In this document: one piece after another, positions 3,503-17,497 of the stretch
Position numbering within the stretch: the stretch's first letter is position 1
How the letters are laid out: each line of letters begins with the position of its first letter
From: Lachnospiraceae bacterium
GTDB lineage: Bacteria > Bacillota > Clostridia > Lachnospirales > Lachnospiraceae
Assembly: GCA_011959805.1 (NCBI GenBank)
Contig: BLMC01000017.1
Coordinates: forward strand, 1 to 47,082
Direction: 5' to 3'
DNA: 47,082 nucleotides
Notes under the pieces: model-generated
Told to the model about the DNA's origin: nothing
The model's database searches: none
The model's input: only the letters and a program-made list of their open reading frames with translations
Program-made: the position numbers and the translations under genes

Positions 3503-3518
3503 TTGTAAGTGCTTACAA
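3503..3518 (-). promoter_or_regulatory. LacI/CcpA-type operator upstream of the kinase gene
   Basis: TTGTAAGTGCTTACAA is a 7+2+7 inverted repeat. It fits the catabolite-responsive element consensus except for TG in place of the central CG. It lies 175 nt upstream of the kinase start. A LacI-family KdgR-like regulator is an equal possibility. Confidence 0.55.
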
Positions 3519-3604
3519 TAAGCATTCTAAATCCTTTTTCACAATAAGTCAACCATATTTTGGATACTTTTTAGTTTATTTTTCCCATTTATATTTCATT
3601 CTTA

Positions 3605-3618
3605 TGAAACCGGTTACA
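3605..3618 (-). promoter_or_regulatory. cre-like operator matching the full consensus
   Basis: TGAAACCGGTTACA matches the TGWAANCGNTNWCA catabolite-responsive element at every defined position. It sits between the kinase gene and the 3' end of the DUF2974 gene, about 275 nt upstream of the kinase start. Whether it acts on the kinase promoter is inferred. Confidence 0.5.
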
Positions 3619-3626
3619 TTCATTCT

Positions 3627-4787
3627 CTAATGCTCTATCCTCTGTCGAATTTTATCGAATGTCTTCCATCGTCTGATATGCTCTTGCTGGTCTTTTGCAA
3701 GCATTTCAATCATAAATCCACCGATTTCCCAGAATACACGTTTTGTTTCTTCATTCATTGCAGAATATTCTTGCATAATTGTGTGCAGCTTTTTCGCAAA
3801 CTCTCCACCCTTTACATTTTTAAGATCAGTTAAAGTCTTTGCCTCCGTAATCTCTATTATCTTAAAAAGACTCTCAATAAACTCTCCAACTTGCTCGATT
3901 TCCAATGCAAAAATCCAATTATTAATGCGATCATAAAGTTCTTTTCTCTTTGGTATCTGAACCTTTGCGCGCTCAAAGTGGTCTCCCTCAACACACCACG
4001 AAAAACAGATATGCTGTTGTACCCCAATTTGTGTACTCTTAATCAAGTCATAATCCGCCTTTTGTTCCATCAGCATTCCTACAAACGATTCATCTGGAAC
4101 AATTTTTAAAATCTTGTCCTTAACCTCATCATAATCGAGTGTCTCCATAAAATCTGGTCGAAATCCCGGTCCATCCATGTTATAAACTTTTCCAATTCTG
4201 CACCGGATACTTTCCTCACAAGTCATGGCAGCATATACAGCCAAATTCCCACCTTTGGAGTGTCCTCCAAAATAAAATCTGAGATTTCTTTTTCTGGCAA
4301 GAATCTTTGCCACTTGATGCACATACTCTGTACTTCTTAATTGTGCTCCAACGGGAGTACGATAAGCCATATAAAAATCCTCTTTCCATCCTATCAACGC
4401 ATCATCTGTTCCGCGAAAAGATAAAAAAATATCACCATTTCCCAATAAAAAAGTCACTGCACAAAACTGTACCCCTTCATTCGCATCCATCTCATCCACC
4501 AAAAAATTTGCCTTCGTATTCCGATATCTGCGTGAAAATGCTACCTTATAAAAAAGTTCTCGATTCTTGTCCAATTCCCATTTGACCGAAATAAAATTAT
4601 GCCAGTCCATCCGCTGTGCTACATCACACAACGCAACAGCTGGCATATTATCGTCTATCCCAGGAACAATCCCATCAAAAAGAAAATAAGAAAAATGAGA
4701 AAAAACAAGACCATCAATCTCACAGAAAGGTTTTTCGGTAAAGGTAAAACCACCAAATTCATAAACATATGAAATAATATCTCCCAT
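3627..4787 (-). CDS. DUF2974 (Mbeg1-like) alpha/beta hydrolase
   Basis: A 386-residue predicted serine hydrolase of the lipase-like DUF2974 family. The nucleophile elbow is GGHSKGGNLAVYAA (GxSxG type), preceded by FLSFRGTDD, which is typical of lipase-class folds. No signal peptide is visible, so it probably acts inside the cell; the substrate is unknown. The start is the ATG 6 nt after GGAGG; in-frame upstream codons overlap the neighbouring gene and lack a ribosome site. It follows the DUF3810 gene after a 47-nt gap that contains a 13-bp hairpin, so the two are likely one transcript. Confidence 0.8.
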   Translation of the reverse strand: MGDIISYVYEFGGFTFTEKPFCEIDGLVFSHFSYFLFDGIVPGIDDNMPAVALCDVAQRMDWHNFISVKWELDKNRELFYKVAFSRRYRNTKANFLVDEMDANEGVQFCAVTFLLGNGDIFLSFRGTDDALIGWKEDFYMAYRTPVGAQLRSTEYVHQVAKILARKRNLRFYFGGHSKGGNLAVYAAMTCEESIRCRIGKVYNMDGPGFRPDFMETLDYDEVKDKILKIVPDESFVGMLMEQKADYDLIKSTQIGVQQHICFSWCVEGDHFERAKVQIPKRKELYDRINNWIFALEIEQVGEFIESLFKIIEITEAKTLTDLKNVKGGEFAKKLHTIMQEYSAMNEETKRVFWEIGGFMIEMLAKDQQEHIRRWKTFDKIRQRIEH

Positions 4788-4800
4788 AATAATCCTCCAA

Positions 4801-4833
4801 GATATCAACACCCATAGACAGGGCGTTGATATC
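4801..4833 (-). other. Intercistronic hairpin between DUF3810 and DUF2974 genes
   Basis: GATATCAACACCC pairs with GGGCGTTGATATC (one G-T pair) around a 7-nt loop. It starts directly after the DUF3810 stop and ends just before the downstream ribosome binding site. No T-run follows, so an RNA-stability or translation-tuning role is more likely than termination. Confidence 0.6.
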
Positions 4834-6033
4834 TTAATATAATTCTCCATCATAATATGTCAAAAGTAAACCTACAACATTATTGTACTGAAGCACTCCT
4901 TCTTCCACACCATTTAATTTCAATGTTACATCCATCAATGTACTAGAAACTTTCTTGACTGTAGAAGTCTTTACAACTGCCTTTTTCTCCACTGTCTGCC
5001 ACTCTTCTCTTGTCAAGAAAATATTATCGTCTGCCACTCCATCACTGATTCGCACATGTTTTCGATAAATACTCTTATTGTTTCCAATAGATTCACAAAA
5101 ATCACTATTGACATAGCTAAGTACACTTAAATATCCACAATATTGTAAAAAAGGATCGTCAGAACGGATACATGCCAAAAAGCCAATCATATTAGCATCA
5201 TCTTCATAAATAAAGCCTTTCGTATGTGCAAGTTCATGGCAAATTGTCGGTGCAATATTCGTAATATACATTACAGAATTAATATTTGCTTCCATAGAGA
5301 ATGGGAAGTAATATCCCATTATGTACTGTTGACTAAAAAATTCAGAAAAGCTTAAATATTTAGGAGTGACATAAAATCCAGCCAACTGGTCATATTCTTC
5401 TCCAAGCTGAATCATTGCCTGTCGTGAAGCCTCAATTAAATCGCCTTCATAATAAGCATCTCCACTGTCATCATGAACTATCTTTTTTTCTAATTCATTA
5501 CATTTTCTCACAATGTAGTCTCGCAATATGGCCAATTCTCTCTTTGTATATGTCTTTTCTTTTGCTGTCTGTGCCATTGCATAATCTGAAACACTGACCA
5601 CCATCAAATCTGATTCTACTTTATTTGTGAGATACTTTTCAGCAAAGCTAGAACTGTGATACAAAATAAAGCAATTGAGAGTCATTACATAGCATACACA
5701 CAGCGCTGTCCAAACATAAAACTTCCCAAAACCAACGGCTACTTTCTGAAATTTATGTTTACACGCCAAGTTCAAAATCCATAAACCAACAACAAACAAT
5801 GTAATCACTACTGCCAAAATCAACATAATTTCACCGACACTAAATGGTACTTTGCTTGTGAGACGCGCATAAGTGTTCAACCAGGCGGGAAAAATATTTT
5901 TGATATACCAATCACTGAAAACCACACTTTTCCACGACGCAATATTGAGTGCTATCACCCCTACTACACCAATGGCAAATATAATTTTGTGCATTTTGAC
6001 TTTTCGATTCGTATTTTTCTCATCTTTTTCCAT
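4834..6033 (-). CDS. DUF3810 membrane-anchored zinc metallopeptidase-like protein
   Basis: A 399-residue protein with three hydrophobic segments in the first 125 residues and a large extracytoplasmic domain. ICHELAHTKGFIYEDDAN carries an HExxH zinc site and a downstream acidic ligand, as in DUF3810 proteins. This suggests peptidase activity on cell-surface substrates, but no activity is established for the family. The start has GGAGGG 6 nt upstream. It leads a probable two-gene unit with the DUF2974 hydrolase. Confidence 0.8.
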   Translation of the reverse strand: MEKDEKNTNRKVKMHKIIFAIGVVGVIALNIASWKSVVFSDWYIKNIFPAWLNTYARLTSKVPFSVGEIMLILAVVITLFVVGLWILNLACKHKFQKVAVGFGKFYVWTALCVCYVMTLNCFILYHSSSFAEKYLTNKVESDLMVVSVSDYAMAQTAKEKTYTKRELAILRDYIVRKCNELEKKIVHDDSGDAYYEGDLIEASRQAMIQLGEEYDQLAGFYVTPKYLSFSEFFSQQYIMGYYFPFSMEANINSVMYITNIAPTICHELAHTKGFIYEDDANMIGFLACIRSDDPFLQYCGYLSVLSYVNSDFCESIGNNKSIYRKHVRISDGVADDNIFLTREEWQTVEKKAVVKTSTVKKVSSTLMDVTLKLNGVEEGVLQYNNVVGLLLTYYDGELY

Positions 6034-6146
6034 ATTTTTCCCTCCAGCAAATGTCTTTATCCATAATTTATTATTTATATTACCATATTATTATGTTAAA
6101 AATATAAATAAATTGTGAACATTCGCCAAAGCACATTTTATTCTAC

Positions 6147-7415
6147 TTATTTTGCTAAGAACTGCTCATATCGCGCTGCATCAACACGACTTACATTTGT
6201 CTCCATATAGATACCCTCCTCATGATATTCCGTATGATATACTACAGCATTGTCATTAAGATAAGACACAATATCTCCTCGCTTATAAGGAATCATAAAC
6301 TCACAGTCCTTGTATCCTGCTGACAATTTTCCCGTTATTAGTGTAATAAGTGTTTCCATACCACTACGCGATTTTGCAGACATATATAATCTATCATCTC
6401 CTTGCACCGTCGCAAATTCTCCCATTCCGCACAGATCTGCTTTATTGTATGCATAAATCATTGGAATTTTCTCTGCGCCAAGTTCCTTCAGCGTATTCTC
6501 TGTCACCCGAATATGCTCCATATAATTCTCATCAGAATAATCAATCACCTGTACAAGCAAATCTGCTTCTAAGACTTCCTCTAAGGTCGAGCGAAATGCT
6601 TTTACCAAATTATGAGGTAAATTAGAAATAAATCCTACTGTATCTGATAGCAAAAAAGCATTTCTATCTGTCGGTGCAATTCTTCTAACGGTGGTATCAA
6701 GAGTGGCAAATAACATATCTTCCTCAAAAACCATCTTCTGTTCATCTGCAACATATGCAGCCAACATAGCATTCATGATCGTCGATTTTCCGGCGTTTGT
6801 ATATCCTACCAGCGCCACTCTTGGGATTCCTGATTCTGCTCTTTTTTTGCGCTGTGTCTTTCGCTCTTCTGCTATATTCTCCAACTCTCGGCGCATGGTC
6901 GTAAGGCGTTGCTCTAATCTGCGCCTATCCAACTCTAGTTTTTTCTCCCCGGCTCCTTTATTGCTCATTGCACCGCTGGCGCCTCCTTGTCTTGATAGCG
7001 CATCGTGAAGCCCTACTAACCTTGGAAGCATATATTGTAGTCTTGCCACTTCAACCTGCAATTTCGCTTCCCTTGTTTTTGCGCGTACAGAAAAGATTTC
7101 TAAAATAAGCGTCGTTCTGTCCATAACTGCACAACCTAGTTCTTCGCTCAAATTTCTAAGCTGAATTGGTGATAAACCATTATCAAACACAACCATATCT
7201 GCTTCCAGAGCCTTCGCCATCTCTCGTACTTCCTGTACCTTACCTGCACCAATATAAGTAGCGGTATTAACACTCTCCATGTTCTGTTCCACACGCCCCA
7301 CTGGTTCCATATCACATGCTTTTACTAAACAAACCATCTCATCCATGGCAAGATCAAAATTCTGGCTTTTTGGGTTTGTCGTAAGATTTAAACCCACAAT
7401 TAACACTTTATCCAT
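6147..7415 (-). CDS. hflX: GTPase HflX, ribosome-splitting factor
   Basis: HflX binds the 50S subunit and splits stalled or hibernating ribosomes; in several Firmicutes it protects against macrolides and lincosamides. The 422-residue product has the N-terminal HflX domain (GAGKVQEV, VFDNGLSPIQLRNL), a coiled-coil linker rich in Arg/Glu near residues 160-190, then the GTPase with GYTNAGKST (G1), DTVGF (G3) and NKAD (G4). The start is the ATG directly after GGAGGTAGAT; a codon 12 nt upstream overlaps that site. It stands alone behind a roughly 420-nt leader with a putative attenuator, described separately. Confidence 0.93.
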   Translation of the reverse strand: MDKVLIVGLNLTTNPKSQNFDLAMDEMVCLVKACDMEPVGRVEQNMESVNTATYIGAGKVQEVREMAKALEADMVVFDNGLSPIQLRNLSEELGCAVMDRTTLILEIFSVRAKTREAKLQVEVARLQYMLPRLVGLHDALSRQGGASGAMSNKGAGEKKLELDRRRLEQRLTTMRRELENIAEERKTQRKKRAESGIPRVALVGYTNAGKSTIMNAMLAAYVADEQKMVFEEDMLFATLDTTVRRIAPTDRNAFLLSDTVGFISNLPHNLVKAFRSTLEEVLEADLLVQVIDYSDENYMEHIRVTENTLKELGAEKIPMIYAYNKADLCGMGEFATVQGDDRLYMSAKSRSGMETLITLITGKLSAGYKDCEFMIPYKRGDIVSYLNDNAVVYHTEYHEEGIYMETNVSRVDAARYEQFLAK

Positions 7416-7452
7416 ATCTACCTCCATACTCTACAGATCTATCATTTCACTA

Positions 7453-7493
7453 GCGTTCAATGTATATTTCATATAATTGTATCTATTGAACGC
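7453..7493 (-). other. 9-bp inverted repeat in the hflX leader
   Basis: GCGTTCAAT and ATTGAACGC form a perfect 9-bp stem about 40 nt upstream of the hflX start. It has no T-run. It may be a second regulatory hairpin or an operator. Confidence 0.4.
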
Positions 7494-7667
7494 ACTTAGC
7501 CTAATGCAATGCGAAATTCCAAACATAATGTTTATACTTATTATAATACTTCGCTACAAATATTGATAGCTTTCTTTTATAATTTACGAATACAAAAATG
7601 CTCTTTTATTCTTTATTCTTTTGGCTCTGCACCGACAAAAAAGATATTGTTTGTAACTATTGTATAC

Positions 7668-7728
7668 AAAAAAAGCTTTTTCAAACAGCAAATTGGGAGG
7701 ATACTGTCTTGAAAAAGCTTTCTTCAAG
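7668..7728 (-). promoter_or_regulatory. Putative transcription attenuator of hflX
   Basis: On the minus strand AGCTTTTTCAAGACAG pairs with CTGTTTGAAAAAGCT (7720-7704 with 7688-7673) and is followed by seven Ts, an intrinsic terminator inside the leader. The same 5' arm can instead pair upstream in CTTGAAGAAAGCTTTTTCAAG (7728-7708), so the two hairpins exclude each other. A 25-codon ORF ends just before this switch. This is the layout of ribosome-mediated attenuation; the mechanism is inferred. Confidence 0.6.
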
Positions 7729-7733
7729 GATTA

Positions 7734-7811
7734 CTATATTGAAAAAGAGTTAAGTGAAAAGCATTCTCTTGATTGCTGTATTCTACTGAACACCGCATCC
7801 ATAATGCTCAT
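7734..7811 (-). CDS. Putative 25-residue leader peptide of hflX
   Basis: A short ORF (starts MSIMDAVFSR, ends SLNSFSI) begins about 25 nt after the predicted transcription start and stops 6 nt before the anti-terminator arm. Its own ribosome binding site is weak. The position fits a stalling leader peptide that would report slow ribosomes, as known for antibiotic-induced resistance genes. Coding status is uncertain. Confidence 0.4.
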   Translation of the reverse strand: MSIMDAVFSRIQQSRECFSLNSFSI

Positions 7812-7841
7812 TCGCGATTAAATTATCACGAATCTACAAAT

Positions 7842-7870
7842 AATATACTAAATTGTCAGACAATTGTCAA
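7842..7870 (-). promoter_or_regulatory. Sigma-A promoter of the hflX leader
   Basis: TTGACA (7870-7865), 17-nt spacer, TATATT (7847-7842) on the minus strand. The -35 overlaps the 10-bp palindrome GACAATTGTC. It is divergent from the tRNA promoter about 50 bp away. Confidence 0.7.
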
Positions 7871-7915
7871 TAGTTTATATTAATTTTCTTATTTTTATAT
7901 TCTTTTATTTTGATA

Positions 7916-7944
7916 TTGACATTATGAACTTGTTTCTATATAAT
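7916..7944 (+). promoter_or_regulatory. Consensus sigma-A promoter of tRNA-Pro
   Basis: TTGACA (7916-7921), 17-nt spacer, TATAAT (7939-7944): a perfect consensus promoter about 32 bp upstream of the tRNA, as expected for stable RNA. Confidence 0.85.
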
Positions 7945-7975
7945 TAAATTGTTATTCCGTCAAGTATATTATTGT

Positions 7976-8050
7976 CGGGGTGTGGCTCAGTTTGGCTAGA
8001 GCGCCACCTTAGGGAGGTGGAGGCCGCAAGTTCGAATCTTGTCACTCCGA
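7976..8050 (+). tRNA. tRNA-Pro, anticodon AGG
   Basis: A 75-nt cloverleaf. The acceptor stem CGGGGTG pairs with CACTCCG, the D arm is GCTC/GAGC, the anticodon stem CCACC/GGTGG encloses the loop TTAGGGA (anticodon AGG, G37), and the T arm is GCAAG-TTCGAAT-CTTGT. The CCA end is not encoded. The body matches bacterial tRNA-Pro. Its A34 would need conversion to inosine to read several CCN codons. Confidence 0.88.
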
Positions 8051-8052
8051 TT

Positions 8053-8187
8053 AAATTGAGTAGGGGAAGATAAACCTTCCTCTATTTCTGTACCGAACGC
8101 GAGCAGGTTTCGCTGCATATTGTCTTTTCGTGTCCGTGTGCAATCGAGCGGGGAAGCTTACTACTCTCACGCCTGGCACCCAAGTGC
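8053..8187 (+). repeat. Dispersed palindromic repeat, copy 3 (1.5 units)
   Basis: It starts right after the tRNA with ATTGAGTAGGGGAAG and a first stem (8057-8087), then GCGAGCAGGTTTCGCTGC as inner hairpin and CGTGTCCGTGTGCA as right end. A second partial unit follows, with ATCGAGCGGGGAAG and the left arm GGCACCCAAGTG, the complement of copy 1's right arm. It is transcribed with the tRNA. Confidence 0.65.
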
Positions 8188-8216
8188 TGCAGAATTATAA
8201 GTTCTGCGGTCTTTTT
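8187..8216 (+). terminator. Intrinsic terminator of the tRNA-Pro transcript
   Basis: GCAGAA/TTCTGC stem (8189-8194 with 8202-8207) with a 7-nt loop, followed by GGTCTTTTT. It lies 140 nt after the tRNA, with repeat copy 3 between. Confidence 0.75.
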
Positions 8217-8407
8217 ATTATAATCTTATCTGCAAATACCAATATTTTGACTAATGTAAAAATCTGTTGTTTTCTACGCTGAATCTTTGCCGCCAATTTT
8301 ATCATTTTCTTAATTTTCTTTCATTTTTCCTCTTTTGTATAGCAAAACAATAAACGTCTTTCGTTTTTTATTGCTTAATATCTATCACACGTCCCAAAAT
8401 ATTTGTA

Positions 8408-8436
8408 TTGATTTTGTAAGTGCAAAAAGCTATAAT
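8408..8436 (+). promoter_or_regulatory. Promoter of the CPA2 antiporter gene
   Basis: TTGATT (8408-8413), 17-nt spacer, TATAAT (8431-8436), about 60 nt upstream of the start codon. The stretch 8217-8407 is AT-rich with no other signal seen. Confidence 0.7.
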
Positions 8437-8497
8437 GTAGACGATACGAAAATACGATGATTAAAAGGCTATCATTACGAAAGAGGGGGAAATTAAA

Positions 8498-9679
8498 ATG
8501 GAATCGTATTTCATGTTTAAAAATCTGGCGATTATTATTGTCGCCGCAAAGATATGTGGGATTGCCGCCAGAAAATGCAAGGCGCCACAAGTAGTAGGCG
8601 AAATCATTGCTGGACTGTTAATTGGACCAAGTCTGCTGGGTTGGGTGGAACAATCCGATTTTCTGATACAGCTCGCTGAGATTGGTGTAGTATTACTTAT
8701 GTTTTCTGCTGGACTAGAAACAGATTTAAAGGATTTGATGAAAACGGGACCGATTGCCGCACTGATTGCCTGTGCTGGTGTATTTATTCCATTAGTATGT
8801 GGCGCGCTGCTGTATATGGCATTTTATGGTTTCGCACCGTGGGGTTCAGAAGAATTTTATAAGGCAGTTTTTGTAGGTACAATACTTACTGCAACCTCCG
8901 TGAGTATTACTGTAGAATCCTTAAAAGAAATGGGAAAATTAAAGGGCCGTGTTGGAACCACTATACTGAGTGCCGCTATTATCGATGATATTATTGGTAT
9001 TATTGTGCTAACCTTTGTAATTGGTTTCAAAAGTCCTGACTCCAAACCTGTAGCTGTTTTAATTAATACCGTCTTGTTTTTTGTATTTGCTATTGTAATT
9101 GGATTTGTTTGTTATAAACTTTTTCAGTACGCAGATAACAAATACCCTCATACAAGGCGCATTCCAATTATGGGACTCGCACTCTGTCTTGCAATGGCAT
9201 ATATCGCAGAAAAATATTTTGGTATCGCTGACATAACAGGAGCTTATGTAGCTGGAATTATTCTTTGTTCCATTCGAGACTCCAAGTACATCGCAGAAAA
9301 GATGGATACAAATTCCTACATGTTGTTTGGTCCTGTCTTCTTTGCAAGTATTGGTTTGAAGACCAATGTAGAAAGCGTGAATATGAGTATTTTAATATTT
9401 TCCATCGCGTTTGTTGCTGTTGGATTAATCTCAAAAATTGTTGGCTGTGGGATTACAGCTCGTCTATGTAAGTTTAGAGGGATTGATTCGTTAAAAATCG
9501 GTGTTGGTATGATGACCCGAGGAGAAGTTGCGCTGATTGTAGCACAAAAAGGATTAACAGCAGGTCTATTGACCCCAGTATATTTTACATCTGTAATCTT
9601 TTTAATTATTGTATCCTCTATATCCACGCCAATTATCTTGAAAATATTATATTCTAAAGATGCTGCTTCCCCGACATAA
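8498..9679 (+). CDS. CPA2-family cation/proton antiporter
   Basis: A 393-residue integral membrane protein with about 12 hydrophobic segments. It matches the Na+/H+ exchanger (KefB/NapA-like) fold: PQVVGEIIAGLLIGPSLLG near residue 30, GLETDLKDL in the first repeat, and the ion-binding pair in AAIIDDIIG near residue 163. It likely exchanges Na+ or K+ for protons across the cytoplasmic membrane. No C-terminal TrkA/RCK domain is present, so this is the short form. The start has GAGGGGGAAA about 7 nt upstream. It is monocistronic, with its own promoter and terminator; the stop codon lies in the terminator loop. Confidence 0.88.
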   Translation: MESYFMFKNLAIIIVAAKICGIAARKCKAPQVVGEIIAGLLIGPSLLGWVEQSDFLIQLAEIGVVLLMFSAGLETDLKDLMKTGPIAALIACAGVFIPLVCGALLYMAFYGFAPWGSEEFYKAVFVGTILTATSVSITVESLKEMGKLKGRVGTTILSAAIIDDIIGIIVLTFVIGFKSPDSKPVAVLINTVLFFVFAIVIGFVCYKLFQYADNKYPHTRRIPIMGLALCLAMAYIAEKYFGIADITGAYVAGIILCSIRDSKYIAEKMDTNSYMLFGPVFFASIGLKTNVESVNMSILIFSIAFVAVGLISKIVGCGITARLCKFRGIDSLKIGVGMMTRGEVALIVAQKGLTAGLLTPVYFTSVIFLIIVSSISTPIILKILYSKDAASPT

Positions 9680-9693
9680 ACGGGGAAGTTTTT
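9666..9693 (+). terminator. Terminator overlapping the antiporter stop codon
   Basis: CTTCCCC/GGGGAAG stem (9666-9672 with 9682-9688) followed by TTTTT. The TAA stop (9677-9679) is in the loop. The T-run is also the GTGCATAAAAA end of repeat copy 4 read from the other strand. Confidence 0.8.
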
Positions 9694-9776
9694 ATGCACA
9701 CAAGTATCCCAAAAATATATTATCAAGGCTTATGGATACTCAACGCGAATAGGAGAAAAATCTTATCCACTCGATT
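9689..9776 (-). repeat. Dispersed palindromic repeat, copy 4
   Basis: On the minus strand it starts AATCGAGTGGATAAGA directly after the HisI-like stop, with a first stem ending CTATTC, then GAGTATCC pairing with GGATACTT (9741-9734 with 9709-9702), and ends GTGTGCATAAAAA. The outer stem is GAGTATCC here but GAGCAC in copy 7; both pair, which is compensatory change. Confidence 0.8.
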
Positions 9777-9779
9777 CTT

Positions 9780-10193
9780 TTATTCCCTATTTTCGCTGTT
9801 TAAATGAATAAGTCTCATATTTTCCATGTCAATTTGTCTATAAAAACAATTGTTTGCCACTCCATTATAAGAAGTATGACATATATTTCCTCTTTGTGGT
9901 CGCACTTGATATACCAATGAATTTTGTTCACAGTTTACCAAAATCTCTATTAATTCAAATTCATTTCCTGATGTTTTCCCCTTATACCACAGTTCGTTTC
10001 TCGATGTGCTCCACAACACTAATCTGCGCAGTCTTATGGATTCTAACATCGCCTGCTCGTTTGTATATGCCACAAGAATTACTTCTTTTGTATCCACATT
10101 CTGAACAGCTACAGGAATCACTTCCTGTCCTACCATATTTGCAATTTTTTTAAAATCAAGATTTAATTCATTTGTTTCTTCTATATATCCCAT
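9780..10193 (-). CDS. HisI-like protein (phosphoribosyl-AMP cyclohydrolase family) with altered metal site
   Basis: The family opens the ring of phosphoribosyl-AMP in histidine synthesis. The 137-residue product keeps VAYTNEQAM, LWYKGKTSGNEFELIEI and the zinc cysteines of CHTSYN and NNCFYR. The usual magnesium-binding DCDxD is NCEQN here, so all three acidic ligands are changed (one conservatively to Glu). No other his gene is nearby. It may be a diverged paralogue with a different role, or poorly active. The start is the ATG after AGGAAAGGAAATTTTG; upstream in-frame codons lack a ribosome site. It follows rplS but is separated by a terminator. Confidence 0.75.
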   Translation of the reverse strand: MGYIEETNELNLDFKKIANMVGQEVIPVAVQNVDTKEVILVAYTNEQAMLESIRLRRLVLWSTSRNELWYKGKTSGNEFELIEILVNCEQNSLVYQVRPQRGNICHTSYNGVANNCFYRQIDMENMRLIHLNSENRE

Positions 10194-10262
10194 CAAAATT
10201 TCCTTTCCTAAAAACTTTCGTGTGCCTGAGAAATATCGAGTAATCAAGGATTGAAATCACGC

Positions 10263-12906: not shown

Positions 12907-12996
12907 TCAAGTAGGAAAGGTTACTTCCTCTACTCGTGCGCTGGACACACGTCAGCTTTGCTGACATATTCTTTAGGTGCCCATGTGCATTAAAAA
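12907..12996 (+). repeat. Dispersed palindromic repeat, copy 5
   Basis: First stem GTAGGAAAGG/CCTCTAC (12911-12933); then GCGCTGGACAC ... GGTGCCCATGTGC as outer stem, with a perfect inner hairpin GTCAGC-TTT-GCTGAC (12951-12965). The end GTGCATTAAAAA merges with the ffh terminator T-run on the opposite strand. It fills the rpsP-ffh gap. Confidence 0.8.
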
Positions 12997-14810: not shown

Positions 14811-15587
14811 TTATGCCGAAGCCACTGCCTCCTTCATCTTACGTACATACTGACAGACAGGCTCGATGCAATTTTTTCCATTTTGTGCAATAAGTTGAAC
14901 AATAGCACTGCCCACAATCGTGCCATCGGATACTGTTGCTATCTCCTGTGCTTGTTCTGGTGTCGTAATTCCAAAACTAATAGCACATGGAATATTTGAT
15001 ACTTCTTTAATATGATTTATCATCTCTTTCAAATCTGCAATGGTTTTACTTCGTACTTCAGGGACACCTAGAGGCGACATACAATAAAGAAAACCATTTG
15101 CATAACGTGATATCATATCAATACGTTCCCTTGATGTAGGTGCAATCATAGTAATCAACTCAATTCCTGCTGCCACACACGCACCGTTTACTTCCTCTCT
15201 TTCTTCAAACGGAACATCAGGAATAACAACTCCGTCAATGCCGCACTCAGCACACTTTTCAAAAAAGTGTTTCGTTCCATAAGTGAAAACTGGATTGATA
15301 TAGGTCATAAAAACTAATGGAATTGTTACTTTTTTGCGCACACGTTTTACCATATCCAATAATTTATCAGTCGTTGTCCCTGCCCTCAACGCTCGTTCAT
15401 CTGCTTGTTGTATGACAATCCCCTCTGCGATTGGGTCTGAAAATGGAATCCCAATCGCAATGATATCCGCACCTGCTGCCGCCATCTGTGGAATCAGTGC
15501 TTCTGTTGTCTCTATATCAGGATCACCTCCTGTTATAAATGCGATAAATGCTTTCCTATGTTCAAATGCTACGCTAATTCTAGCCAT
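14811..15587 (-). CDS. trpA: Tryptophan synthase alpha chain with substituted catalytic residues
   Basis: The fold matches TrpA: AFITGGDPD near the N-terminus, GIPFSDPIAEG, FMTYINPVF, GIDGVVIPDVPFEE and ISFGITTPEQ. Family members cleave indole-3-glycerol phosphate and pass indole to TrpB. The general acid Glu49 of Salmonella TrpA (LELGVPFSDP) is Ala here (IAIGIPFSDP, codon GCG), Asp60 is Glu (common in clostridial relatives), and the phosphate loop GVTG is GVPE. These changes should cripple indole-glycerol-phosphate cleavage. The gene is full length and in frame (258 residues), so it is not a simple pseudogene. The start follows GAGAGGAGAAATAAAA. It is 213 nt downstream of trpB. Confidence 0.88.
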   Translation of the reverse strand: MARISVAFEHRKAFIAFITGGDPDIETTEALIPQMAAAGADIIAIGIPFSDPIAEGIVIQQADERALRAGTTTDKLLDMVKRVRKKVTIPLVFMTYINPVFTYGTKHFFEKCAECGIDGVVIPDVPFEEREEVNGACVAAGIELITMIAPTSRERIDMISRYANGFLYCMSPLGVPEVRSKTIADLKEMINHIKEVSNIPCAISFGITTPEQAQEIATVSDGTIVGSAIVQLIAQNGKNCIEPVCQYVRKMKEAVASA

Positions 15588-15800: not shown

Positions 15801-17000
15801 TTAATCAAAAATCTCCACACCTCTATACCTTGCAATCGCTGCAACATCCTTGTCGCCGCGCCCTGAAATAGTTATTACAATAATCTGGTCTTTCTGAAAT
15901 TTTGATGCTATCTTTTTCGCATAAGCAACCGCATGTGCACTTTCAATTGCTGGAATAATCCCCTCTATCCGTGATAAATACTCAAATGCTTCCACAGCTT
16001 CCTCGTCTGTAATAGGTACATACTCAGCGCGTCCTGTATCATGAAGATTTGCATGCTCTGGTCCAATTCCAGGATAATCTAATCCTGCCGATATTGAGTA
16101 GACAGGCGCAATCTGTCCATATTCATCTTGACAGAATAAAGACTTCATACCATGAAAAATACCAATCGTCCCATTCGCAATTGTCGCCGCATTTTTGGGA
16201 TTATCTACGCCAAGACCTGCTGCCTCACAACCAATTAATCTAACTTCTGTATCAGGTATAAATTCATAAAAAGACCCCATTGCATTGCTTCCGCCACCTA
16301 CACAAGCAATCACCGCATCCGGCAACTTTCCCTCTAACTTCATAAGCTGCTCTTTGATTTCTTCCCCAATAACTTTCTGGAAATCGCGCACAATCATTGG
16401 AAACGGGTGTGGTCCCATAACAGAACCTAGCACATAGAGTGTATCGTCCATTCTGGAAGCCCACTCCCGCATTGTCTCATTAACAGCATCCTTAAGGGTC
16501 ATGGTTCCTGTGGTTACAGGATGCACTTTCGCACCCAAAAGTTCCATTCGATAGCAGTTTAACACCTGTCTATCCGTGTCTTCCTTTCCCATAAAAATCT
16601 CACACTCTAAGCCCATCAGAGCTGCTGCAGTAGCTGTTGCAACGCCATGCTGCCCTGCACCAGTCTCTGCAATTACACGTCTCTTTCCCATCTTCTTTGC
16701 TAAAAGCACTTGGCCAAGCACATTGTTAATTTTGTGAGAGCCTGTGTGATTCAAATCCTCTCGTTTTAAATAAATTTTTGCGCCCCCCAAATCCTTTGTC
16801 ATTTTCTTAGCATAATACAAAAGCGAAGGTCTACCTGCATAATTTTCCATCAAATTCTTTAACTCTAATTGGAACGCCACATCATTTTTATATGTATCAT
16901 ATGCTTTTTCCACCTCTTGTATTGCCGGAATCAGTGTTTCTGGTATGTATTGTCCTCCGTATAAGCCATATCTACCTTTTTTTGCTTCCATCTTATTCAT
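15801..17000 (-). CDS. trpB: Tryptophan synthase beta chain
   Basis: A PLP enzyme joining indole and serine to tryptophan. All key residues are present: the PLP lysine in HTGSHKINN, the catalytic Glu in [17 protein letters not shown] for the phosphate, and [11 protein letters not shown]. Length (399) is normal. Two starts are possible, at 17000 or nine bases later; both share AGGAGGGGA. It is preceded by a T-box leader for tRNA-Trp and followed by trpA. No trpE, G, D, C or F gene is adjacent, so the pair is split from the rest of the pathway or serves indole salvage. Confidence 0.96.
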
Positions 17001-17062
17001 TCCCCTCCTACAAAATATTATTATGCTCTATAAAATACTTTTTTTCTTTAAGCAACTGTGCG

Positions 17063-17153
17063 CAATCGAGTAAGAAATATCTTTTTTTCCTCGCGCCGAA
17101 CGTCTGTCAGCTTTGGCTGACATTTTTCCTTTGCGAACCGTGTGCACAAAAAA
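17063..17153 (+). repeat. Dispersed palindromic repeat, copy 6
   Basis: AATCGAGTAAGAAA, a degenerate first stem, then an inner hairpin TGTCAGC-TTTG-GCTGACA (17104-17121) and the end CGTGTGCACAAAAAAA. The outer stem is weaker than in other copies. It lies in the trpB leader between the T-box terminator and the start codon, and its A-run is the terminator T-run on the other strand. Confidence 0.75.
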
Positions 17154-17445
17154 AGCTCCTGTCCTAATATTTCTACTAGGACAAAAGCTCTAACACTTCT
17201 GCGGTACCACCTAATTTGGCATATCAAAAAATACACCCTCTCTACACACGCACCATCATGCGTTTTCCCTTGATAACGGGCGGAAATCCCGTTGGGCATT
17301 ACTCAAGTCACCTTTGCCTGACTCTTTGCTCCCACCTTCCCAAGTCCATTCCATATCTTATTGAATACTGCAATCCCACCACCTGCAGCTCTCTGTAAAT
17401 CTCCTAACACATGTACTCCTCTTGGTCATTAGTTTCGTGTCGGTA
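17150..17445 (-). promoter_or_regulatory. T-box riboswitch sensing tRNA-Trp, controlling trpBA
   Basis: The antiterminator core TTAGGTGGTACCGCAG (17215-17200) is the T-box hallmark. Stem I contains the AGTA element of the specifier loop near 17414 and the matching 3' side GAATGGACTT near 17350, giving specifier codon TGG (Trp). The terminator is GTCCTAGTA/TATTAGGAC extended by AGCT-type pairs (17193-17158) and followed by seven Ts. Uncharged tRNA-Trp should allow read-through into trpB. Confidence 0.92.
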
Positions 17446-17468: not shown

Positions 17469-17497
17469 ATCATAAATGTTCTGACAGAATATGTCAA
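17469..17497 (-). promoter_or_regulatory. Promoter of the trpBA T-box transcript
   Basis: TTGACA (17497-17492), 17-nt spacer, TATGAT (17474-17469) on the minus strand. TGACATATTCTGTCA is a 5-bp dyad overlapping the -35, which could be an additional operator. Confidence 0.75.

What the first reader, a model, noticed from the sequence alone, without database searches (positions are those of the whole stretch)
14811..15587. TrpA lacks the catalytic glutamate while TrpB is intact
The LELGVPFSDP motif is IAIGIPFSDP (Glu49 to Ala), Asp60 is Glu and the GVTG phosphate loop is GVPE. Glu49 is essential for indole-glycerol-phosphate cleavage. The gene is otherwise full length and co-located with trpB under a Trp T-box, so the alpha chain may be kept only to activate TrpB for indole and serine condensation, or it has a new substrate.
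Basis: partly seen in the sequence, partly recalled or inferred. Interest (0 to 1): 0.7.

Follow-up and report, generated by a model that had tools for sequence, protein, structure and literature searches.

The report
Non-catalytic TrpA kept beside TrpB
A gut bacterium appears to have lost most of its tryptophan-making operon and then the cutting activity of one subunit of tryptophan synthase, keeping that subunit most likely as a helper for the other one; the same loss has happened independently in several related bacteria.

Summary
The window TrpA (14811-15587, -) is full length, with Glu49 replaced by Ala, GVTG by GVPE, and also Gly211 by Ser. Asp60 to Glu is not part of the loss: 107 of 117 intact relatives have Glu60. 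The window is the ancestral operon locus: in relative G016 the same genes flank T-box-trpEGDCFBA, and here about 4.9 kb (trpEGDCF) is missing between T-box and trpB. TrpA departs alone at 14 genus-invariant sites (next species 4, median 0), TrpB at 1. Among 125 TrpAs compared, 8 have a broken active site (window included), at least three independent losses on a TrpB tree. All 8 keep the TrpB-facing loop 2; all 8 lose Thr183. This fits a non-catalytic alpha subunit kept as TrpB's partner for indole + serine to tryptophan; urogenital Chlamydia trachomatis is a known precedent. Caveats: the genome is an 86.5%-complete draft, short contigs sampled were unreadable, and a foreign trpE sits at a contig end, so a second operon with a working TrpA is a serious rival for where the indole comes from. 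Seven of 12 TrpC-less genomes keep an intact TrpA. Nothing was assayed; a structure prediction never finished.

The parts
14811..15587 (-). trpA', full-length TrpA without the catalytic glutamate and with an altered phosphate site
15456..15458 (-). codon GCG: Ala at the position of Glu49
15057..15068 (-). codons for GVPE in place of GVTG (loop 6, Thr183 and Gly184)
14976..14978 (-). codon AGT: Ser at the position of Gly211
15801..17000 (-). trpB, all 169 conserved columns kept, catalytic and allosteric residues present
17174..17438 (-). T-box leader, UGG after GAA in the specifier region (read by eye), 78% identical stretch to the leader of trpE in G016
16995..17088 (-). deletion junction: in G016 about 4.87 kb with trpEGDCF lies here
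17469..17497 (-). promoter-like site upstream of the T-box (11 of 12 matches; the region as a whole has no excess of such sites, 10 against 8.6 expected)

Best explanation
The window holds what is left of a native trp operon after an in-place deletion of trpEGDCF. Its TrpA can hardly cleave indole-3-glycerol phosphate (inferred from sequence) and is kept as a non-catalytic partner of TrpB. It docks on TrpB through loop 2 and neighbouring interface loops and supports TrpB in making tryptophan from serine and free indole, most likely indole taken up from the surroundings. The Trp T-box turns the pair on when tRNA-Trp is uncharged. Shown: the residue losses, the missing genes at this locus, the intact TrpB, the kept interface columns, the T-box, the recurrence in other genomes. 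Inferred: loss of activity, docking and activation of TrpB, the source of indole.
For: Four active-site positions lost in TrpA while TrpB keeps 169 of 169 conserved columns. 14 genus-invariant departures in TrpA, 1 in TrpB; dN/dS of TrpA against three relatives 0.09-0.15 by YN00 (0.05-0.11 by NG86), so still constrained. trpEGDCF missing from a locus that is otherwise syntenic with G016 and G060. No IGPS, trpD or trpF found in the assembly. Same pattern in G098, G159 and G235: no IGPS found, single TrpA, E49 and loop-6 motif lost, beside trpB. In the six broken TrpAs found without a motif pattern, 72 of 72 interface cells kept against 212 of 264 cells at other conserved columns. Two broken TrpAs that share a clade in the TrpB tree, L228 and L235, differ with dN/dS 0.22-0.24, so the gene is maintained after the loss. 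Precedent: C. trachomatis TrpA cannot make indole from IGP, yet full-length TrpA is needed for TrpB (PMC6635532, passages).
Against: The draft is 86.5% complete in 431 contigs and the two contigs under 3 kb that I fetched read as N, so absence of trpGDCF is not proven. A foreign trpE with its own T-box lies at the end of contig C181. Of 12 genomes with a TrpA read and no IGPS found, 7 keep an intact TrpA, so decay does not always follow. G011b is broken although its genome has IGPS and a second, intact TrpA. TrpA' evolves about twice as fast as its intact relatives (dN 0.13-0.15 against 0.055-0.065), which would also fit slow decay. G235's TrpB has Cys for Arg175. No assay, no reads, no complex model.
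Confidence: 0.65

Rival explanations
1. Operon replacement: the genome carries a second, foreign trp operon (T-box-trpEGDCFA, as in relative G011) whose TrpA does the IGP cleavage. The native trpEGDCF was then free to go, TrpB is still supplied from the window, and the window TrpA is a non-catalytic second alpha subunit, redundant or a standing partner of TrpB.
For: C181 TrpE is 79-80% identical to G011's and about 50% to the genus's own. This type was found in only 2 of the 38 same-genus genomes searched, G000 and G011, and both have a broken TrpA next to trpB. G011 has trpEGDCF then an intact trpA, without trpB in the 17-kb stretch read. The part of C181 away from trpE is closest to G000 in tetranucleotides and GC, the trpE part is not, so C181 looks like a genuine contig with an acquired trpE.
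Against: No trpD, IGPS, trpF or second TrpA over the cut-off in the readable assembly. C181 stops at the end of trpE, so nothing downstream is seen. It does not explain G098, G159 and G235, each with one TrpA and no IGPS found.
Confidence: 0.35
2. Pseudogene in the making: trpA' is a recently freed gene decaying neutrally, with no remaining role.
For: Recent loss: the nearest TrpBs in the tree, G016 and G060, come with intact TrpAs; TrpA changes faster than in relatives.
Against: ORF and ribosome-binding site intact; dN/dS well under 1; interface columns kept in 8 of 8 broken TrpAs, some far diverged; L228-L235 constrained.
Confidence: 0.12
3. TrpA' has taken a new substrate.
For: Full-length TIM-barrel family protein with a changed active site.
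Against: Phosphate site lost by different changes in each lineage without shared new residues; it stays next to trpB with an unchanged interface.
Confidence: 0.03

Closest known systems
Chlamydia trachomatis (urogenital) trpRBA indole salvage
   Same: trpBA without the upstream pathway; TrpA reported unable to make indole from IGP; full-length TrpA needed for TrpB to use indole (PMC6635532, passages)
   Different: Here a T-box, not TrpR; outright loss of Glu49 and of the loop-6 motif; several independent origins in Clostridia; the C. trachomatis TrpA residues were not compared here
TrpAB-only 'A1' pathway variant of human gut bacteria
   Same: only tryptophan synthase left, indole + serine proposed; listed for 14 strains (PMC9026213, passages)
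   Different: the passages say nothing on whether TrpA is catalytic
TSB-like pseudoenzyme of eudicot plants
   Same: a dead tryptophan synthase subunit kept as allosteric activator of its partner (PMC12727527, passages)
   Different: mirror case: dead beta activates alpha, to make free indole
Canonical tryptophan synthase alpha subunit (TrpA)
   Same: family score, length, loop 2, adjacency to trpB
   Different: Glu49 and the phosphate site are lost

Membership tests
TrpA protein family (TIGR00262 / PF00290) | profile score over the curated cut-off | tested here: met
   261.5 against 102.35 bits; PF00290 271.4 bits, over cut-off
TrpA as an IGP-cleaving enzyme | catalytic Glu49 | tested here: not met
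   Ala; Glu in 117 of 117 intact relatives
TrpA as an IGP-cleaving enzyme | acidic residue at position 60 | tested here: met
   Glu, the clade norm (107 of 117 intact)
TrpA as an IGP-cleaving enzyme | phosphate site / loop 6 (Thr183, Gly184, Gly211, Gly213, Gly234, Ser235) | tested here: not met
   T183P, G184E, G211S; Gly213, Gly234, Ser235 kept
TrpA as an IGP-cleaving enzyme | measured IGP cleavage | not testable with these tools
   needs an assay
TrpB-partner alpha subunit | loop 2 (P53-P57, A59) and other interface columns kept | tested here: met
   kept in 8 of 8 broken TrpAs; assignment of 129, 132, 134, 135 to the interface is recalled
Chlamydia-type indole-salvage trpBA | trpBA present, rest of the trp pathway absent from the genome | tested here: inconclusive
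   trpD, C, F not found, one foreign trpE present, genome incomplete, trpG not searched
Chlamydia-type indole-salvage trpBA | TrpB needs TrpA to use indole | not testable with these tools
   needs an assay
T-box leader (RF00230), tryptophan type | covariance model over the gathering score, UGG specifier | tested here: met
   108.5 against 93 bits; UGG read by eye

The most novel reading that the evidence does not exclude
Gut and related Clostridia have repeatedly (at least three times on well-supported branches, five on the best TrpB tree) turned the tryptophan synthase alpha subunit into a purely allosteric subunit: the IGP site and the mobile loop 6 are lost while loop 2 stays invariant, giving a ligand-independent activator of TrpB dedicated to scavenged indole. 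This would be a recurrent pseudoenzyme class and a natural separation of loop-2 from loop-6 signalling.
Probability: 0.5. Interest if true: 0.75.

Novelty: new variant of a known kind. Interest (0 to 1): 0.6.

Why it matters
Tryptophan synthase is a textbook allosteric enzyme whose two subunits activate each other. Here evolution seems to have run the experiment of removing the alpha reaction while keeping the alpha subunit, several times, in gut anaerobes. Natural variants with loop 6 deleted and loop 2 intact would let the two signalling routes be separated at the bench. It also means that annotating such a TrpA as a working enzyme, and calling the pathway from it, is wrong for these genomes, which may depend on indole made by neighbours.

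Tried and rejected
Sequencing error at one codon: rejected, four active-site positions and 14 genus-invariant positions changed in TrpA, 1 in TrpB. D60E as decay: rejected. New substrate: rejected for lack of shared new residues. Mirror specialisation in G011 (its intact TrpA having lost the interface): tested and not so; it departs at 2 of 104 columns conserved at 85% or more, neither in loop 2. Foreign trpE as a plasmid gene: 649 plasmid records match, none at 60% identity or more. Association of broken TrpA with missing IGPS by independent pairs on the TrpB tree: about 2 informative pairs, median p 0.5, no power. 'Res6' stand-alone residues of TrpB (PMC11917138, passages): positions could not be mapped safely, not used. 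Literature: eight searches of an open-licence library; in their listings and in passages of nine papers I saw dead or non-working TrpA only for Chlamydia; I saw no report of it in Clostridia, which is not proof that none exists.

Limits of the counts. 'Broken' is defined by active-site columns, so losses there are by construction; only the kept columns and the remaining losses inform. Rows dropped before the 125-row set: fragments G027, G298 and G419, TrpA-like paralogues G317 and G095, and 9 duplicates. TrpA-like matches of G056 and G097 were not read. G177 and G356 (weak matches, E above 1e-4) were not followed. The list of genomes with TrpA but no IGPS was read by eye. Of the order-wide genomes that do have IGPS, only those also in the first 60-relative set had their TrpA read; some low-scoring ones (for instance G100, G307, G309) were not, so broken TrpAs beside IGPS may be under-counted. 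The 80 named loci were fetched by patterns around PFSDP or the Y.N motif, so loop-2 conservation in L228 and L235 is partly by construction. Fisher p-values treat related rows as independent.

Full report
Observation. The ORF at 14811-15587 (-) encodes a full-length TrpA of 258 aa that starts with ATG behind AGGAG and is over the TrpA cut-off. Aligned to E. coli TrpA and relatives it has Ala for Glu49, GVPE for GVTG and SFG for GFG. In that alignment 42 of 42 other relatives with the site readable keep Glu49. Position 60 is Glu in 29 of 29 intact same-genus rows and 107 of 117 intact rows overall, so that part of the finding is normal for the clade.

Not an artefact. Among 33 same-genus TrpAs the window protein departs alone at 14 columns that are otherwise invariant; the next species have 4 (G006, in which no IGPS was found either) and 3, the median is 0. 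Its TrpB departs at 1 column (31 rows). Against three relatives the window TrpA has dN 0.13-0.15, compared with 0.055-0.065 between intact orthologues, and dN/dS 0.09-0.15 by YN00 (0.05-0.11 by NG86); TrpB is at 0.03-0.04 by YN00. TrpA changes faster but remains constrained. dS is near or above 1, so the ratios are rough.

The locus. G016 has, in order, HK, RR, a 220-aa gene, tetR, trpE, G, D, C, F, B, A, ylxM, ffh, rpsP, rimM, trmD, rplS; G060 has the same from the 220-aa gene to trmD within the stretch read. The window has these genes on both sides and lacks only trpEGDCF. Window 17740-17089 aligns at 78% to the stretch before trpE in G016, and 16994-15802 to trpB; in G016 about 4.87 kb lies between. 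The T-box scores 108.5 bits, with UGG after GAA in the specifier region by eye. There is a promoter-like site upstream and no terminator-like site between trpB and trpA on that strand. This is a deletion in place that put the old leader in front of trpB.

The genome. It is an unnamed draft (4.25 Mb, 431 contigs, 86.5% complete) of a genus that includes the public record Lachnospiraceae bacterium UBA7205: G032's contig and L162's have the same length and the same TrpA. IGPS, trpD and trpF were not found, nor a second TrpA over the cut-off; IGPS was found in 29 of the 35 other same-genus genomes. Two caveats. The two contigs under 3 kb that I fetched read as N. And contig C181 stops at the 3' end of a trpE that has a T-box upstream just under the gathering score (90.7 against 93 bits). 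This TrpE is 79-80% identical to that of G011 and about 50% to the genus's own; its third-position GC is 0.55, against 0.29-0.40 for seven window genes. Among 38 same-genus genomes this type was found only in these two. G011 has trpEGDCF followed by an intact trpA, without trpB in the 17 kb read, and elsewhere trpB with a broken TrpA. The part of C181 away from trpE matches G000 in composition, the trpE part does not. A second, acquired operon is therefore a serious rival for the source of indole, though not for the non-catalytic nature of the window TrpA.

Recurrence. In 392 genomes of the order, 258 have a TrpA match and 253 an IGPS match. Of those with TrpA and no IGPS, 15 were sent on together with 2 more same-genus genomes. 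G098 (E49K), G159 (E49Q) and G235 (E49I) have lost both Glu49 and the loop-6 motif, each beside trpB and each with that single TrpA match; their completeness is 96, 67 and 79%. G159 has a T-box match upstream of trpB (76 bits, under gathering); none was found in the G098 and G235 stretches. Against a simple rule, G369 (99% complete, one contig), G391 and G010 have trpBA without IGPS but an intact TrpA, and G170, G208, G145 and G240 keep an intact TrpA without IGPS in their assemblies; G208's contig begins at trpF, so its trpC may simply be missing. Of 80 named loci from a scan of public genomes (best 80 of 583), all keep Glu49; L228 and L235 have a broken phosphate site, and L216 has T183N alone. 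None of 66 loci with another trp pathway gene in the stretch held is broken; 2 of 14 without are (Fisher p 0.029). Among 52 G rows, 5 of 12 without IGPS and 1 of 40 with IGPS are broken (p 0.0016). Rows are related, so these p-values are only indicative, and a tree-aware test had no power. The 1 of 40 is G011b, whose genome has another, intact TrpA.

Pattern of loss and retention. Of 71 columns conserved in at least 95% of 117 intact TrpAs, the eight broken ones keep 44 to 67. Thr183 is kept in 0 of 8, Gly184 in 2, Gly234 in 2, Glu49 in 4; Pro53 to Pro57, Ala59, Asn104, Pro129, Asp130, Pro132, Glu134 and Glu135 in 8 of 8. In the six broken TrpAs found without a motif pattern, these interface columns are kept in 72 of 72 cells against 212 of 264 cells at other conserved columns, with the defining columns and loop 6 left out. 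Asp56 and Pro57, Asn104 and Asp130 are named as interface or coupling residues in passages of PMC6608616 and PMC8187860; 129, 132, 134 and 135 are assigned from recall. The seven TrpBs that could be examined keep 165 to 169 of 169 conserved columns (G006's trpB is off its contig). A TrpB tree of 65 rows needs 5 changes, at least 3 on well-supported branches. The window's TrpB sits with those of G016 and G060, both with intact TrpAs, so its loss is recent; L228 and L235 form one clade and their TrpAs differ with dN/dS 0.22-0.24.

Mechanism. E49D alone is reported to abolish TrpA activity (PMC12930369, passages) and T183A to cut it dramatically (PMC6608616, passages), so the window protein should be inactive on IGP. 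What is preserved is the surface that faces TrpB. A passage of PMC11917138 describes coupling from loops 2 and 6 of TrpA to the COMM domain in a TrpA-dependent TrpB; the broken TrpAs keep the first and change or lose the second. The most economical reading is a ligand-independent partner for the indole + serine reaction. That tryptophan synthase of gut bacteria can use outside indole is reported for bifidobacteria (PMC11085991, passages). Whether indole here comes from outside or from a second TrpA in this genome is not settled.

Comparison. C. trachomatis is the functional precedent (PMC6635532, passages), so the kind is known. New here are its repeated origin in Clostridia, the T-box setting, and the outright loss of Glu49 and loop 6. 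My literature searches covered open-licence papers only.

Noticed in passing
L108 (G013) 3512-10178: The operon begins with trpD after tetR; no trpE or trpG was detected in the stretch and no chorismate-binding domain in the genome, so this species may live on outside anthranilate. The genus shows several stages of trp operon loss.
   Followed up: no
L033 3676-9236 and L034 8003-9959 (G011): Two TrpAs in one genome: an intact one behind trpEGDCF without trpB, and a broken one behind trpB.
   Followed up: partly
L086 1900-5019 (G000:C181): Transposase-like and integrase-like ORFs (by eye) next to the foreign trpE; 531 bases are 92% identical to a stretch in same-genus G013, so a mobile element may have been involved.
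   Followed up: no
12951-12965 and 17106-17121: A short palindrome (GTCAGC...GCTGAC) occurs in both places and also in the leader of G016 at L101 6013, close to where the deletion begins.
   Followed up: no
9780-10247: A lone phosphoribosyl-AMP cyclohydrolase-like gene (PRA-CH over the Pfam cut-off, 75.2 against 27; under the NCBIfam cut-offs, 89.6 against 126).
   Followed up: no
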